From contig JAIUML010000036.1 in the NCBI GenBank assembly GCA_022565595.1, positions 1 to 34,644 on the forward strand: a stretch of DNA of 34,644 nucleotides, in the 5' to 3' direction. This document shows positions 1-34,529 of the stretch, piece by piece. The position numbers and the translations under genes are program-made. The notes below the pieces were generated by a model. It was not told the origin of the DNA. It saw nothing but the letters and a program-made list of their open reading frames with translations, and did no database searches. Origin of the DNA: Saccharospirillum sp. (GTDB lineage: Bacteria > Pseudomonadota > Gammaproteobacteria > Pseudomonadales > Natronospirillaceae). Each line of letters starts with the position of its first letter. The stretch's first letter is position 1.

Positions 1-50
1 CCGGCGACGACGTGGATGGGGCCTGGTTACGCTTATGTCATTCATTTTAA

Positions 51-76
51 GTGTCCACTAAGAAATAAGTGGACAC
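51..76. repeat. perfect 9-bp hairpin near window start
   Basis: GTGTCCACT at 51-59 and AGTGGACAC at 68-76 form a perfect inverted repeat around an 8-base A-rich loop. No U-tract follows, so it is not a convincing terminator. It could be a protein-binding site or the remnant of an element end; nothing else here identifies it. Confidence 0.5.
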
Positions 77-127
77 TATCCTGACGCTCGGGACTTTCGG
101 CTCAAGATGGGATTACCGGACGCTTAC

Positions 128-328
128 GACCTACTCTCACGAGAGCCGAAGCGTCGGACCGACCGTTGCGCCGGCCGGGTCCTCGTCAAGCTTTTAATAC
201 CAACCCCGGGCCAAATTTGGTTCCGGGGTTTTTTTATGCCTGTGGCTTCGGTTCGGGAGACGATGATCTACTCTCACATGGGGAAATAGACAGTGGCGCG
301 AAGCGCCCGCCTCACCATGTGATAGTAG
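128..328. other. inverted fragments resembling the 3' end of 5S rRNA
   Basis: Three short stretches resemble the conserved CCATGTGAGAGTAGG segment near the 3' end of bacterial 5S rRNA. On the minus strand they lie at 128-140 (GTGAGAGTAGGTC) and at 268-281 (CCATGTGAGAGTAG). On the plus strand one lies at 315-328 (CCATGTGATAGTAG). The last two form a 14-base inverted repeat with one mismatch. None is part of a complete 5S gene, because the 5' half is absent. The resemblance was judged by eye and the fragments are short, so origin from 5S is plausible but not proven. Confidence 0.45.
202..235 (+). terminator. rho-independent terminator of an upstream transcript
   Basis: AACCCCGG (202-209) pairs with CCGGGGTT (223-230). 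The interior CCAAATTTGG (211-220) is itself palindromic, and seven T residues (229-235) follow. This is a strong intrinsic terminator reading on the plus strand. No plus-strand gene lies between position 1 and the terminator, so the transcript starts left of the window. The nearby 5S-like fragments make an rRNA operon one possibility, which cannot be confirmed here. Confidence 0.75.
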
Positions 329-349
329 GGCGAATGCCGGTCGCGCAGC

Positions 350-442
350 GAGCCAACGCATGCGTTGGCAGGTATTCGCGACAGGCCATGGATGGCCTGG
401 CTGGCACAACAACAGGGAAGTCCTTCCGAGCGATCAACTCGG
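350..442. repeat. string of short hairpins
   Basis: Consecutive small inverted repeats fill this non-coding stretch: GCCAACGCATGCGTTGGC (350-367, perfect palindrome), CAGGCCAT-gg-ATGGCCTG (382-399), GGAAG-tc-CTTCC (416-427) and CCGAG-cgatcaa-CTCGG (426-442). No reading frame here looks like a gene. The spacing and size resemble the hairpins of repeat modules X and Y immediately downstream, so this may be further, more degraded material of the same kind. Confidence 0.5.
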
Positions 443-494
443 TCATCGTAGCGACAGAACCCGCCCCCGGCGCTCGCCATAGCGGCTGGTCTCT

Positions 495-542
495 CACTGG
501 AGCGTCGATATCCTCATCGACGTAGTCGGCGTAAGCCGACCC
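495..542 (-). repeat. repeat element X, copy 1 (two-hairpin module)
   Basis: Read on the minus strand, this 48-base unit is hairpin 1 (GTCGGC-ttac-GCCGAC, plus-strand 525-540), a 2-base link, hairpin 2 (CGTCGATGAGGATATCGACG, plus-strand 503-522) and the tail CTCCAGTG. It matches copy 2 at 27259-27306 in about 43 of 48 positions and is related to copy 3 at 32726-32770. It lies in the sense orientation downstream of ogt, whose stop is at 635. Confidence 0.8.
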
Positions 543-555
543 TTGTAGCCAAACC

Positions 556-592
556 AGCGGGCTGACGCCCGCCGCGTCGATTGCAAATCGAC
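556..592 (-). repeat. repeat module Y, copy 1 (two-hairpin module)
   Basis: This module contains hairpin GCGGGC-tgac-GCCCGC (557-572) and hairpin GTCGATTGCAAATCGAC (576-592). The same pair of hairpins recurs at 32794-32831. Read on the minus strand here it precedes element X by 13 bases, whereas at 32.7 kb it follows X. The second hairpin has exactly the 5-bp stem and TTGCAAA loop of a tRNA-Cys(GCA) anticodon arm, but no complete tRNA surrounds it. Confidence 0.7.
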
Positions 593-634
593 ACACCAGA
601 GTTCAACTACTCCATTTATACCCCCTGAGCAACA

Positions 635-7824: not shown

Positions 7825-8877
7825 TCAGTCGTTGTCGAGCAGATCACGAGAGCGCAGGTCGGACAGGCGCTTCATCAGATGCTCCAGTTCGGCGTGTTTC
7901 TCGCGACGTTCGCTGACTCGGTCTTCGAGGAAGTCGACGACCTGCTTTTGCAGCTTGACCTTGCTCAGACGGTTGATATTGGTAATGCCACCGGGGTTAC
8001 AGACATTGACTTCCAGCAGTCGCTCACCAATCAGATCAAGGCCGACAAAATCCAGCCCATCGGTCACCAGTTTGGGGCCGATTTTCCGACAGACGCGTTT
8101 CTGTTCTTCGGTTAACTTCCAGCTATGGGCGCTGCCACCGGCCTGTATATTGGCGCGCACATCGCCATCGGCAGGCTTGCGATGATAAGCACCAATGGCC
8201 TTGCCGTTGAGCATCATGACGCGTACATCGCCTTCTTCGGCGCCGTCGATGTACTCCTGCAGAATGACATAGTTGTTGCGCTCCCGGTCGATGTAAAAAT
8301 CGAGCAGACTCTTGATACTCGATTGAGCCGACTTTTCCAGCACGATAACGCCATGGCCACCACTGCCATCGAGCGGCTTGAGAATCCATTTTTCGCGTTT
8401 ACTCTCACGAATGACGCGCAACAGATAGTCCTTGTTCTTGGACACATGGGTCTCAGGCAGGAAGCTGTTGCCGGGGTCATGAAAGGTGGTCGTATAGAGT
8501 TTGTTGCTGGCCTTGCGCACGCCGTCGACATCGTTGATGACCAGAGTCTCGTTCTTGACGGCATCGAGAAAGCTGAGAATGGTCGGATCGATAGGTGGAT
8601 CCTTGCGGATCATGATGCAGTCGAAAGCATGCAACGGCAGCATTTTCTCGTCAAACTTGATCTTCTTGTACAAAGTGGCAACGGCCTCTGGCACCTTGTC
8701 CATGGGCTGGATGACCCTGGAGAAGCCATTGACGACGTTGTTGCGCACGGTCAAATTCTGCGGGTACAGCAGGGCGACTTTGTGCCGGCGCATCAGGCAT
8801 TCCTGGATCATCACCAGGGTGGAGCTCTTGCCTGGCTCAATGTCTTCCCAGGCGTTGATCAAGAAAGCGATATACAT
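7825..8877 (-). CDS. ATP-grasp ligase, glutathione synthetase (GshB)-like
   Basis: 350 residues. The arrangement follows GshB: IMIRKDPPID, then LVINDVDGVRKASNKLYTT, WILKPLDGSGGHGV (ATP-grasp glycine loop), DVRVMMLNGKAIGAYHRKP, then GLDFVGLDLIGERLLEVNVCNPGG (metal ligands). It should form a peptide-type amide bond via an acyl phosphate; glutathione synthesis or a related ligation is possible. The C-terminus adds a charged helical tail (about 310-350). The start MYIAFLINAWED at 8877 matches the family; the frame is open further upstream only through palindromic repeat DNA. It is the first gene of the unit running into the GNAT and photolyases. Whether it is the housekeeping gshB or a paralogue cannot be decided from this window. 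Confidence 0.85.
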   Translation of the reverse strand: MYIAFLINAWEDIEPGKSSTLVMIQECLMRRHKVALLYPQNLTVRNNVVNGFSRVIQPMDKVPEAVATLYKKIKFDEKMLPLHAFDCIMIRKDPPIDPTILSFLDAVKNETLVINDVDGVRKASNKLYTTTFHDPGNSFLPETHVSKNKDYLLRVIRESKREKWILKPLDGSGGHGVIVLEKSAQSSIKSLLDFYIDRERNNYVILQEYIDGAEEGDVRVMMLNGKAIGAYHRKPADGDVRANIQAGGSAHSWKLTEEQKRVCRKIGPKLVTDGLDFVGLDLIGERLLEVNVCNPGGITNINRLSKVKLQKQVVDFLEDRVSERREKHAELEHLMKRLSDLRSRDLLDND

Positions 8878-8944
8878 GCGGTAACCTTGTCTAATTATCC
8901 TGTCCAGACTAAACCCTGAGGGGCATCTGGGCAAGCGGGCGGCT

Positions 8945-8973
8945 AGTGTAGTAGTGCTCTCTTTGATCGCCAA
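8945..8973 (-). promoter_or_regulatory. candidate promoter for the ATP-grasp/GNAT/photolyase unit
   Basis: On the minus strand TTGGCG (8973-8968), a 17-base spacer and TACACT (8950-8945) form a reasonable sigma-70 promoter about 70 bases upstream of the ATP-grasp start codon. Moderately weak hexamers, no other evidence. Confidence 0.35.
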
Positions 8974-9011
8974 GTATTGTTTGCTTAACCGTGTTGAGTG
9001 GCAGTCGCCCG

Positions 9012-9140
9012 CCCAGGGGGCCGGGTAGGCCTCTTGCGGGTCGCCGCAAGTACGATCCCTGTAGGCTCGACTGCAGCCTCCGAAGCGTCGGACCGCCATG
9101 GCTGCAGACGTGCCGCCAGAGGCCTACCCGGCCCCCTGGG
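9012..9140. repeat. large palindromic element A
   Basis: A 129-base non-coding palindrome. The 23-base outer arms 9012-9034 and 9118-9140 are perfectly complementary (CCCAGGGGGCCGGGTAGGCC then TCT, and its complement). Inside are hairpins TTGCGG-gtcg-CCGCAA (9034-9049), TCCGA-agcg-TCGGA (9079-9092) and an enclosing TGCAGCC...GGCTGCA. It shares the core GGCTCGACTGCAGCCT and CCATGGCTGCAGAC with element B, which carries it inverted. It also shares CCGAAGCGTCGGACCG (9080-9095) with positions 146-161. No transposase is present, so if mobile it is non-autonomous. Confidence 0.8.
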
Positions 9141-9326
9141 CTCAATTTTCCGACAAGTCAAAACAGGAAGCCCCACTATGTCTTTCAATTGAAAGGCGGT
9201 CACTAGCTATTAGATTTTAAGGTCTTCAACGGGATGTGTTGGAATGACTTGAGGATTAATCACTAGAACTATCACAACGTTTGCCGTTTAAGTTGTGTCA
9301 GTGCAGTCGAAAGGTCGAGCGAGTGG

Positions 9327-23134: not shown

Positions 23135-23345
23135 GCTGAAACGTGAAGATTTCAGAGCAGTCCGTTTTGCTCCTGTTGAGTAGTGGCGGGGCTACTGTCC
23201 AATAATACGGGATTACGACTGACCTTGACGCAAAAAGTTCCGGGCCTGTCACTGCTGGTACGCGATATCAACGCTCATGGATGGCTTGACACTTCAGCGC
23301 AGAGCGGTAAGCCTTGAGGTTTCTTGAACCTGGATGGAGTTCAGT

Positions 23346-26174
23346 GTGACCCTACCTCCCTTATTGGAGCGCGACGCTCAAACCATTACCGATCTGCCGA
23401 GCTGGGATTCTCTGGCCGAAGTTGATCAGGGGCGATTACTGAAAGCGGCCTTGTGCAGCCCCTGGTTGGCGGAGTGGTTGCAACAGCAAGAGGACTGGTC
23501 GGCAATCACCAGGGCCGTTGAGGCTACTGATCACGATTTCGAGTCCACTCTGGCTGAGTCGGCAGCGCAATGGCGACCTGGACAGGATGAAGAAGTTATG
23601 GCCGATTTACGTCGCTGGCGCAACTTTGAAATCGCTCGCCTGATCATTCGTGATGCCAACCACTTGGCTACCGTCCAGCAGACATCCCGCACGGTATCGG
23701 ACCTGGCTGATACGGCCATTCGCCAGGCACTGGACTATGCGCACCGGGCATGTGTCGGCAAATGGGGCGAGCCGTCCGACGGCAAATTCGGACAGCAGTC
23801 ACAGCAACTGGTGGTGATTGCCATGGGCAAGCACGGTGCGCGCGAGTTGAACCTGTCCTCCGATATTGATCTGATTTTTGCCTTTCCCAGTGCGGGAGAG
23901 ACCACAAAGGGTCGCAGTCATGAGGAATTTTTCACCCAGGTCGGCCGAACGCTGATCAGGTTGCTCGACACACGCACGGCTGACGGCTTTGTGTTTCGGG
24001 TCGACATGAGGTTGCGGCCCTGGGGCCAGAGTGGCGCACTGGTGAGCAATTTTTCGGCCATGCATCACTATTACACCCATCAGGGCCGAGAATGGGAGCG
24101 TTTTGCCATGGTCAAGGCCCGGGCAGTGACAGGAGCAAAGGCGGCTCGCCGCGCGCTTGAAGGCGACCTGCGCCACTTCGTTTATCGCCGCTACGTTGAC
24201 TTTCATGCTCTGGGTGCCTTGAGACGCATGAAGAGCATGATTCAGAAGGAAGTTCGACGCCAGCAGTTGGAAAACAATATCAAGTTGGGTCAGGGCGGTA
24301 TTCGGGAAGTAGAGTTCATTACCCAGGCCTTTCAATTGATCCGAGGTGGGCAGGATTTTGCTCTCCAGGAGCGCGGCACCTGGCCGGTGCTGACGATTCT
24401 GCGCGATCAGGACTACCTGCCCGCAGCGGTGGTGACAGAACTGGACGAGGCCTATTGTTTTTTGCGCGACCTCGAACATCGCATTCAGGCACTGCGTGAC
24501 GAGCAAACCCAGCGCTTGCCGGGCGACGATGTCGATCTTGCTCGCCTGGCCTGGTCCATGGCTTGTGATGACAGTGACCACTTGCTTATGCAACTGAAGC
24601 ACCATCGGGAGCGTGTGCATTACCACTTCAGCCAGGTTATTGCCGAGGAAGGAGAGGATGGCCAGGGTGTGGATGAAGGCCTGGCAGCATTCTGGTTCAG
24701 GCCGGAACAGCGGCCAGATTTATTACCCGAGTCTGCTGCCGAAGCCATACAGGCCTTCGCACAGGACCCTGCTGTGCAGCGCCTGAGTGGCCAGGCCCGC
24801 GACAATCTGGATCGGTTCATGCCCATGCTGTTGACTGAACTTGCCAGAATCAACCGGTTGGAGACCGGTTTTGACAGCATCCGTCCCATTCTGGAGAGCA
24901 TTGTAAGGCGATCAGTCTATTTTGTGTTGCTGGCTGAGAACCCGGGTGCATTGCGGCAGTTGTGTCGCCTGGCCCCGGTCTGCCCCTGGATTGCTGATGC
25001 TTTGTTGCAAAAGCCCTATTTGCTGGATGAGCTGACCGATCCGGACAGCCTTTACCGTCTACCGAACAAGGCAGAGCTGGTTGATGAACTGCATCAGGCG
25101 CTGGTGCGTGTGCCGGAGGACGATCTGGAGCAGCAGATGGAAGTGTTGCGCCACTTTCGCCATGGCCGGGTGCTAAGGGCGGCCGCTTGTGAAGTGACCG
25201 AAACCTTGCCACTGATGAAAATTTCAGATTACCTGGCCTGGGTTGGTGAAGTGGTAGTGGATCAGGCTCTGGCGCTGGTCTGGCAGCAGATGGTGGCCAA
25301 ACACGGCCGACCCAGCCGGGAGGACGGAGAATGGTGTGAACTCGACTTCGGTGTGGTTGCCTATGGCAAAATGGGCGGGCTGGAGTTGTCCTACGAATCA
25401 GACCTCGACCTCGTCTTCCTGCACAAGGCCGCCCCCCAGGGTGAAACCGAAGGGCCGAAGGTCATCGACAATGTGGTGTTCATGGCGCGGCTCGGCCAGA
25501 AGCTGATTCATATGCTCAGCACACGCACGCCCTCCGGCATGTTGTACGAAGTGGATACTCGTCTGAGGCCTTCCGGTAACTCCGGTTTGTTGGTCAGTTC
25601 GCTCAACGCCTTTGCCAAATACCAGCAGAAGGATGCCTGGACCTGGGAGCATCAGGCACTGGTGAGAGCGCGCTTCATCGCCGGTGATCCAGAGGTGAAG
25701 CAAGCCTTCGAGGCGATGAGGTCGGAGATCCTGTGCCGAGAGCGAGACCCGCAAAGGCTGCGCCAGGAGGTGCTGGAAATGCGCCAGAAGATGCGCGACA
25801 ACCTGTCCAGTAAAGGTACCAATCCAGACGGTGAACCCCTATTTGATATCAAGCAGGATCCAGGTGGTATCGTCGATGTCGAATTTATGGTGCAATACGG
25901 CATTCTGACAGGGGCACATCGTTACCCAGAGCTGACTCGGTGGTCTGACAACATCCGTTGTCTGAATGCCCTGCAGCAGGCTGGTTGGCTAACACAGGCA
26001 CAAACTGAACAATTGCTCGATGCCTATCTGGATTTACGTCAACATGTGCATCAGCAGACGCTGGCGCTGAACAGTGTCAAGCTGTCTGGTGAAGCCCAGT
26101 TGGCGCCTTTGGCAGCGACACGAGAGGCCGTTCAACAGTGTTGGCAAAGCTTGTTGGCAAACCCTGCTCAGTAG
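23346..26174 (+). CDS. glnE: bifunctional glutamine synthetase adenylyltransferase/adenylyl-removing enzyme
   Basis: 942 residues from the GTG start. GlnE attaches AMP to, and phosphorolytically removes it from, a tyrosine of glutamine synthetase in response to PII signals. Two homologous nucleotidyltransferase domains are visible. The N-terminal de-adenylylating one is near residue 160 (MGKHGARELNLSSDIDLIFAF). The C-terminal adenylylating one is near 672 (YGKMGGLELSYESDLDLVFLH). Each carries the Gx(D)xD metal motif, with RLRPWGQSG and RLRPSGNSG following. Length is full for the family. GTG at 23346 is preferred because GGAG sits 6 bases upstream; ATG at 23334 lacks a site at normal spacing. 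glnE next to ilvE is also the Pseudomonas order. Confidence 0.95.
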   Translation: MTLPPLLERDAQTITDLPSWDSLAEVDQGRLLKAALCSPWLAEWLQQQEDWSAITRAVEATDHDFESTLAESAAQWRPGQDEEVMADLRRWRNFEIARLIIRDANHLATVQQTSRTVSDLADTAIRQALDYAHRACVGKWGEPSDGKFGQQSQQLVVIAMGKHGARELNLSSDIDLIFAFPSAGETTKGRSHEEFFTQVGRTLIRLLDTRTADGFVFRVDMRLRPWGQSGALVSNFSAMHHYYTHQGREWERFAMVKARAVTGAKAARRALEGDLRHFVYRRYVDFHALGALRRMKSMIQKEVRRQQLENNIKLGQGGIREVEFITQAFQLIRGGQDFALQERGTWPVLTILRDQDYLPAAVVTELDEAYCFLRDLEHRIQALRDEQTQRLPGDDVDLARLAWSMACDDSDHLLMQLKHHRERVHYHFSQVIAEEGEDGQGVDEGLAAFWFRPEQRPDLLPESAAEAIQAFAQDPAVQRLSGQARDNLDRFMPMLLTELARINRLETGFDSIRPILESIVRRSVYFVLLAENPGALRQLCRLAPVCPWIADALLQKPYLLDELTDPDSLYRLPNKAELVDELHQALVRVPEDDLEQQMEVLRHFRHGRVLRAAACEVTETLPLMKISDYLAWVGEVVVDQALALVWQQMVAKHGRPSREDGEWCELDFGVVAYGKMGGLELSYESDLDLVFLHKAAPQGETEGPKVIDNVVFMARLGQKLIHMLSTRTPSGMLYEVDTRLRPSGNSGLLVSSLNAFAKYQQKDAWTWEHQALVRARFIAGDPEVKQAFEAMRSEILCRERDPQRLRQEVLEMRQKMRDNLSSKGTNPDGEPLFDIKQDPGGIVDVEFMVQYGILTGAHRYPELTRWSDNIRCLNALQQAGWLTQAQTEQLLDAYLDLRQHVHQQTLALNSVKLSGEAQLAPLAATREAVQQCWQSLLANPAQ

Positions 26175-27249: not shown

Positions 27250-27258
27250 TGACAGCTC

Positions 27259-27306
27259 GGGTCGGCTGCCGCCGACAGCGTCGATGATGATATCGACGCT
27301 CCAGTG
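27259..27306 (+). repeat. repeat element X, copy 2
   Basis: Hairpin 1 GTCGGC-tgcc-GCCGAC (27261-27276), a 2-base link, hairpin 2 CGTCGATGATGATATCGACG (27279-27298) and the tail CTCCAGTG. It begins 10 bases after the ilvE stop codon, in ilvE sense orientation, and runs into a T-tract. Close to identical to copy 1 (495-542). Confidence 0.85.
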
Positions 27307-32704: not shown

Positions 32705-32725
32705 ATAGCAAGTTCGTTTGAATCA

Positions 32726-32770
32726 GGTTGACTGACGTCAACCACGTCGATGATGATATCGACGCTCCAA
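32726..32770 (+). repeat. repeat element X, copy 3 (compensatory stem changes)
   Basis: Hairpin 1 GGTTGAC-tgac-GTCAACC (32726-32743), a 1-base link and hairpin 2 CGTCGATGATGATATCGACG (32745-32764), then CTCCAA. Hairpin 2 is identical to copy 2. Hairpin 1 differs in primary sequence, but two stem pairs changed on both sides (C-G to T-A and G-C to A-T), so pairing is kept. It begins 22 bases after the glmM stop, in sense orientation. Confidence 0.8.
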
Positions 32771-34250: not shown

Positions 34251-34321
34251 GCCGCCGCCTGAGGGGCATTATACTGGTGTTACCGTTGGTTTTTTCAGGT
34301 AAGAGTTTGTAGCAAGATGAA

Positions 34322-34414
<93 letters not shown>

Positions 34415-34452
34415 TTCGAGAGTGGGCTTGTGTTAGAAGAGTAGGAGTTTGT

Positions 34453-34529
<77 letters not shown>

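What the first reader, a model, noticed from the sequence alone, without database searches (positions are those of the whole stretch)
495..542. Element X: a two-hairpin interspersed repeat found three times, always downstream of a stop codon in sense orientation
Copies at 495-542 (minus), 27259-27306 (plus) and 32726-32770 (plus) follow ogt, ilvE and glmM, with the same strand as the gene each time. They start about 10 bases (ilvE), 22 bases (glmM) and 93 bases (ogt, with module Y between) after the stop. Hairpin 2, CGTCGATGATGATATCGACG, is nearly invariant. Three independent genes sharing a structured 3' element suggests an mRNA 3'-end function (stability, termination, protein or sRNA binding) or a REP-like element with strong insertion preference.
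Basis: partly seen in the sequence, partly recalled or inferred. Interest (0 to 1): 0.72.

Follow-up and report, generated by a model that had tools for sequence, protein, structure and literature searches.

The report
REP-like repeat hosting retro-intron insertions
Element X is one copy of a family of roughly 140 short, foldable DNA repeats scattered just after genes in one bacterium (probably a Saccharospirillum), and a self-splicing mobile intron uses these repeats as its main landing sites.

Summary
They belong to a large family: 120 matches to the 20-mer in a 4.77 Mb genome (reversed control 1) and 137 model hits of at least 25 bits. Units form inverted doublets of 93-132 bp, as in REPINs. 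"Module Y" is a rarer sister unit. A T run rarely follows, so X is no intrinsic terminator. No transposase flanked by X was found.

Unexpected: 9 of 11 copies of a group II intron (IIC-like by its target) begin right behind an X or Y hairpin A, at CTC^CA, the conserved outer edge of X.

Verdict: a new REP/REPIN-like family, found in numbers only in this species in my samples, and the main landing pad of a group II intron.

The parts
498..543 (+). X unit, copy 1 (repeat orientation: TGGAG head, hairpin A 503-522, hairpin B 525-540)
   Evidence: R1 hit 68.2 bits
554..598 (-). Y unit ('module Y'), inverted partner of copy 1; together a tail-to-tail doublet at about 498-600
   Evidence: R1 hit 42.4 bits; GTCGATTTGCAATCGAC at 576-592
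27258..27303 (-). X unit, copy 2 (hairpin B 27261-27276, hairpin A 27279-27298, CTCCA 27299-27303)
   Evidence: R1 hit 68.9 bits; single unit between convergent genes
32724..32769 (-). X unit, copy 3 (hairpin B 32727-32742, hairpin A 32745-32764, CTCCA 32765-32769)
   Evidence: R1 hit 68.5 bits
32794..32810 (+). Y-type hairpin beside copy 3, 1 mismatch
27301..27302 (+). predicted intron site CTC^CA, empty in this copy; the other X copies of the window carry the same motif
   Evidence: inference from 9 occupied sites elsewhere in the genome

Best explanation
X is a small non-autonomous repeat of the REP/REPIN kind. The unit that spreads is probably the tail-to-tail doublet: in single-stranded DNA its ends (TGGAG...CTCCA) pair into one long stem carrying hairpins B1 and B2, and many single units are remnants. 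Copies survive mainly in the short spaces behind genes, where they do least harm. The enzyme that spread them was not found in this assembly. Independently, a group II intron, IIC-like by its target, has adopted X as its main target: its RNP recognises hairpin A as a DNA stem-loop and reverse-splices at CTC^CA just 3' of it. Shown: copy number, structure, compensating changes, doublets, position, exact intron junctions. Inferred: ssDNA mobility, doublets as the replicating unit, class IIC, and the RNP mechanism (carried over from the E. rectale IIC structure paper).
For: Copies: 120 against 1 in the reversed control; 137 model hits of at least 25 bits. Tail-to-tail pairs with a gap under 60 nt: 33, against about 0.06 at random. 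25 doublets with intact ends, 93-132 bp. The one doublet folded as ssDNA has its ends paired, z -7.45. Units in doublets score higher than the rest (64 and 65 units, median 63.9 and 51.3 bits, p 0.0009). Covariation score 0.31 against 0.12 in shuffles. Convergent 25, divergent 4 of 62 clusters. Intron: 9 of 11 5' junctions behind hairpin A (8 X, 1 Y), 10 of 11 5' exons end ACTC, 8 of 10 3' exons begin CA. Domain V matches RF00029 in one locus, just over its cut-off (40.6 against 40); the ORF end matches GIIM (26.6 bits, cut-off 23). Occupied X sites are ACTC in 7 of 8; of 92 free sites 34 are ACTC, 54 GCTC, 4 CCTC (p 0.019 for ACTC against GCTC).
Against: No X-flanked transposase: the only Y1_Tnp gene found (C10, L031) has its own 28-bp inverted repeats and no X in its locus. 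No target-site duplication, which fits single-strand insertion but proves nothing. Only half of the unoccupied units (64 of 129) are in doublets. No empty site in a close strain was available. The intron body is not assembled, so class IIC and pairing to CTC are inferred: a GAGT at intron nt 171 could pair with ACTC, but the one related intron found (L273) has GAGC at that motif beside an exon ending CCTA. The two intron sites outside X/Y follow palindromes seen by eye, but the best folds of their 45-nt flanks choose other pairings. The doublet-against-rest score is partly circular, because the model was built from strong copies.
Confidence: 0.8

Rival explanations
1. X is a functional mRNA 3'-end element (stabiliser, or protein or sRNA binding site) selected behind stop codons.
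For: Median 20 nt from the nearest stop; nearest gene end a stop in 53 of 62; hairpin B kept by compensating changes, loop GNNA in 63 of the 67 units with a readable 4-nt B loop, of 103 looked at.
Against: No X behind ilvE in 3 Saccharospirillum relatives. The 5 other genus members sampled have 0 hits (four) or 1 weak hit. Flanking proteins are mostly unrelated to each other.
Confidence: 0.12
2. X is a miniature inverted-repeat element (MITE) cut down from a DDE-type insertion sequence with TGGAG ends.
For: Doublets have inverted ends TGGAG...CTCCA and a fairly fixed length.
Against: No target-site duplication. No gene family recurs beside X beyond 4 of 154 flanking proteins, and the one of those four that was scanned is a LysR regulator. 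The conserved part is a hairpin, not a plain terminal repeat.
Confidence: 0.1
3. X doublets are spread by a RAYT (Y1 HUH transposase) in the classical REP manner, by a gene now lost, diverged or acting from elsewhere. This would complete the best explanation rather than replace it.
For: REPIN-like doublets; an ssDNA-stable fold; one REP_Tyr_transpos-like gene exists.
Against: That gene is below the family cut-off (66 against 80 bits) and is flanked by its own inverted repeats. A GTAG or GTGG tag stands before hairpin B in only 37 of 97 units.
Confidence: 0.4
4. X is a transcription terminator family.
For: Hairpins behind stops.
Against: A T run follows hairpin B in only 7 of 94 and hairpin A in 1 of 94.
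Confidence: 0.03

Closest known systems
REPINs (REP doublets forming hairpins), Pseudomonas fluorescens SBW25 (PMC3116915, abstract start and passages seen)
   Same: Short inverted doublets between genes that score as better conserved than single units and fold as one hairpin in ssDNA; three collapsed 30-bp forms, a kind of remnant that paper mentions.
   Different: X units are 46 nt with two hairpins and a TGGAG end; no RAYT flanked by the repeat was found here.
GTAG- and CGTC-tagged REPs (PMC3733652, abstract and passages seen; tag definition GT[A/G]G also in PMC3686654, passages seen)
   Same: Palindromic, mostly behind genes, between convergent or co-directional genes, dimers common; the CGTC group also lacks a dedicated transposase.
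   Different: Neither tag is met: GT[AG]G stands between the two hairpins in only 37 of 97, and X's CGTC lies inside the stem rather than as an unpaired end.
REP-targeting insertion sequences such as ISPpu9, ISPpu10, ISPsy8 and ISPa11 (PMC1525189: abstract, Results section and a table passage seen)
   Same: A mobile element enters one fixed position of a REP.
   Different: Here it is a group II intron, not a DNA transposon. That paper's table lists a P. putida group II intron associated with REPs in 2 of 9 cases, and its Results section does not discuss it.
Group IIC introns (PMC10190682, passages seen)
   Same: Target is a DNA stem-loop followed by short IBS1/IBS3 pairing.
   Different: The targets here are mostly one dispersed REP-like family (9 of 11) rather than terminators or attC sites (these usual targets are recalled).

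Membership tests
REP (GTAG type) | 5' terminal GT[A/G]G tag next to a palindrome | tested here: not met
   GTAG 30 + GTGG 7 of 97 units with an exact hairpin A; the conserved end is TGGAG in 112 of 136
REP (general) | high copy number, between genes, palindromic | tested here: met
   120 matches; 79 of 85 clusters clear of called ORFs; two paired helices
REP (CGTC type) | unpaired CGTC end, 8-9 bp stem, 4-5 nt loop, CCA tail | tested here: not met
   CGTC is in the 7-bp stem, loop 6 nt; only the CCA tail fits
REPIN | inverted doublets far above chance that fold as one hairpin and are better conserved than singlets | tested here: met
   33 tail-to-tail pairs holding 64 of 129 unoccupied units, higher scores; one doublet folded
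REPIN/RAYT system | RAYT gene flanked by the same REP | tested here: not met
   single Y1_Tnp gene, own 28-bp inverted repeats, no X in its 3.3-kb locus
REPIN | demonstrated mobility (excision or polymorphic sites) | not testable with these tools
   no second strain or reads
Group II intron | catalytic domain V, maturase domain, constant 5' and 3' ends | tested here: met
   RF00029 40.6 bits in L103 (cut-off 40; three other loci with a 3' end did not reach it), GIIM 26.6 bits, constant ends in 11 and 10 copies
Group IIC intron | insertion just 3' of a DNA hairpin | tested here: met
   hairpin A in 9 of 11; the other 2 follow palindromes of 7-8 bp seen by eye, while the best folds of their flanks pair otherwise
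Group IIC intron | class C RNA fold and maturase clade | tested here: inconclusive
   intron body not assembled; only 178 nt of the 5' end and 121 aa of the ORF
Intrinsic terminator | hairpin followed by a T run | tested here: not met
   7 of 94 and 1 of 94

The most novel reading that the evidence does not exclude
The repeat and the intron are coupled. The outer edge to which X is conserved (TGGAG, read the other way CTCCA) is exactly the intron's exon-recognition site, and in my samples both occur in numbers only in this species. The intron may have evolved to live on a REP family as a safe haven, or its RNP and reverse transcriptase may even help spread the repeat.
Probability: 0.12. Interest if true: 0.8.

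Novelty: new variant of a known kind. Interest (0 to 1): 0.5.

Why it matters
Dispersed hairpin repeats are known targets of DNA transposons. Here a retroelement intron seems to have specialised on such a family, which gives it many nearly harmless sites behind genes. The family also adds a REP-like repeat with two hairpins, one nearly fixed in sequence and one kept mainly by base pairing, and with no flanking transposase found. It is a natural test of what is needed to spread such repeats and of how group IIC-type introns choose structured DNA.

Tried and rejected
Transcription terminator: rejected. Known RNA family: at gathering scores the window has only a tRNA, and nothing at E 0.1 in 1-640. 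attC-type integron site: considered from recall only, not tested. Parent transposon: all-against-all of 154 flanking proteins gave groups of at most 4. Target-site duplication: none over 25 doublets. Viral contigs: 0 for a degenerate 25-mer. Plasmids: no match for one doublet. The phage collection was not searched. Genome contigs: 0 for the 25-mer, own genome possibly left out. Wider spread: of 369 class genomes incl. the own, 8 have a hit and only the own more than one; that search scored 16 candidates a genome, so it is weak. Of the three intron-like matches outside the genome, L271 and L272 were dropped: beyond the searched start they do not continue as the intron does and look like coding sequence (MoxR-type ATPase by recall); L273 does continue. 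EBS1 = GAGT: suggestive here, unsupported in L273. Rows dropped: of 145 model hits, 3 below 17 bits were not carried into and 5 more below 25 bits were dropped; 17 clusters at contig edges and 6 overlapping ORF calls (two of these ORFs score well) were left out of the 62. The gap-type p-values use gaps from the same loci as background and are biased; the 25 against 4 comparison is not.

Full report
What was checked. The three copies exist at the stated places, and their core is far beyond chance in the window. The window is contig C36 of a 4.77 Mb, 66-contig genome. The best named matches to the 946-aa gene at 23334-26174 (glnE by recall) are Saccharospirillum salsuginis (70%) and Saccharospirillum sp. 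M30B14 (67%) and MSK14-1 (66%); the own genome may be left out of that collection. I therefore take the host to be a Saccharospirillum.

How many copies. The 20-mer hairpin gives 120 matches at up to 3 mismatches, against 1 for the reversed pattern. A covariance model R1, built from 42 copies, gives 145 hits at E up to 1; only 150 of 4371 candidates were scored, so this may be a floor. I used 137 hits of at least 25 bits, in 85 clusters: 45 single units and 40 with two to four.

The unit is TGGAG (112 of 136), hairpin A (7 bp, 6-nt loop), 2 nt, hairpin B. Of hairpin A's seven pairs only the outermost often changes on both sides (37 of 130 rows); the rest are nearly fixed. All six pairs of hairpin B change on both sides in at least one row, with 96.1% of cells paired. 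That alignment was fitted to the model and leans towards the structure; the free MAFFT alignment of 42 copies gives the same picture (95.1% paired, covariation 0.292 against 0.107 in shuffles). In 67 of 103 units with a readable A, hairpin B has a 4-nt loop at one mismatch or fewer, and 63 of these 67 loops are GNNA; from recall, such loops are unusually stable in DNA.

Doublets. Tail-to-tail inverted pairs with a gap under 60 nt number 33, against about 0.06 expected at random. Twenty-five have intact TGGAG...CTCCA ends and span 93-132 bp, with no target-site duplication. The one doublet I folded as DNA pairs its two ends into a long stem with hairpins inside (z -7.45). Units in doublets (64) score higher than the other unoccupied units (65); the model was built from strong copies, so this is partly circular. 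Three 30-bp collapsed forms exist in the held loci. Y has 12 genome copies at up to 2 mismatches in its 17-mer, control 0; comparing coordinates, 9 of 12 lie within about 35 bp of an X.

Place and strand. Of 62 clusters with genes called on both sides and no ORF overlap, 25 lie between convergent, 33 between co-directional and 4 between divergent genes. Convergent and divergent junctions are about equal in number in any genome, so 25 against 4 is a strong bias (about 1e-4 by my own binomial arithmetic). The nearest gene end is a stop in 53 of 62, and the median distance to the nearest stop is 20 nt over 68 clusters. The 'always sense' pattern of three copies is therefore best read as small-sample chance. 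Genes were called with a simple codon-usage script.

The intron. Nine contig ends carry one sequence joined at the same point of X or Y copies. It starts GTGTGCCCGG; its 3' end holds a domain V that Rfam calls a group II intron in one locus, just over the cut-off; the ORF piece on C40 has the maturase domain GIIM. All 11 5' junctions found end in CTC. Nine follow hairpin A (8 X, 1 Y). The other two follow palindromes of 7-8 bp seen by eye, although the best folds of their 45-nt flanks pair otherwise. With X covering about 0.13% of the genome, 9 of 11 is not chance (binomial 7e-25 for random insertion; an intron that seeks hairpins departs from random insertion anyway). Eight of 10 3' ends continue with CA, two with CC. 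Occupied X sites are ACTC in 7 of 8; free ones ACTC 34, GCTC 54, CCTC 4 (p 0.019 for ACTC against GCTC). The intron start is found in 1 of 22 family genomes, the own. In 369 class genomes three others matched; two were dropped as coding look-alikes, and one real relative (L273) sits behind an ordinary hairpin ending CCTA. Class IIC rests on the hairpin-3' habit and on recalled sequence likeness, not on a full fold.

Spread. In 28 genomes (own and relatives) X occurs in numbers only in the own (137). G004 has one weak hit. G016, of another genus, has nine hits, all on two small contigs that are 100% identical over long stretches to the own contig C40, whose scanned genes are ordinary metabolic and regulatory ones; contamination of one assembly is the likeliest reason.

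The missing enzyme. PF01797 at E up to 0.001 and the REP_Tyr_transpos model at E up to 10 both find one gene (C10, L031), below the latter's cut-off, with 28-bp inverted repeats of its own at 96% identity and no X hit in its locus. Di Nocera et al. (PMC3733652, abstract and passages) describe transposases flanked by such repeats, and REP families (CGTC) with no dedicated transposase, so an orphan family is not unprecedented.

Literature. Tobes and Pareja (PMC1525189: abstract, Results section, table passage) show DNA transposons entering REPs at fixed positions and list a P. putida group II intron with REPs in 2 of 9 cases. My searches for group II introns with REPs, group IIC targets and Saccharospirillum repeats (no paper) listed none whose title or shown abstract describes a group II intron specialised on a REP family; the library holds open-licence papers only, and I opened 5 papers. 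The E. rectale IIC structure paper (PMC10190682, passages) supports recognition of a DNA stem-loop followed by a short IBS1.

Judgement. X is ordinary in kind (REP/REPIN-like) but a new family with an unusual two-hairpin unit. The intron's use of it as the main landing pad is the surprising part.

Noticed in passing
window 337-599: The X-Y doublet of copy 1 is part of a longer segment repeated at 94% over 265 nt at the end of contig C12, and its last 123 nt at 91% at the starts of C13 and C31. Rfam finds no RNA there at E 0.1.
   Followed up: partly
window 1-128: Shared at 96% with the end region of contig C63; may be the end of an insertion sequence.
   Followed up: no
window 34321-34362 and 34446-34487: A 42-nt exact repeat at the start of tRNA-Met (34453-34529): an apparent partial tRNA copy upstream; a similar 214-nt stretch (88%) lies next to another X on contig C4.
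   Followed up: no
window 9011-9039 and 9113-9141: 29-nt arms, 97% complementary, around the 5' end of the minus-strand ORF at 7825-9099, plus another inverted pair 9056-9079/9365-9388.
   Followed up: no
L031 1393-2198: A lone Y1 transposase gene with 28-bp inverted repeats, just behind a fragment that looks like the end of an Rhs-type gene (Rhs by eye).
   Followed up: partly
L160, L161: Two contigs of another genus (G016) are 100% identical over long stretches to the own contig C40: contamination, or a very recent transfer.
   Followed up: partly
ends of contigs C7, C14, C22, C29, C30, C32, C33, C58, C60: Assembly breaks fall inside the intron inserted in X or Y copies.
   Followed up: yes
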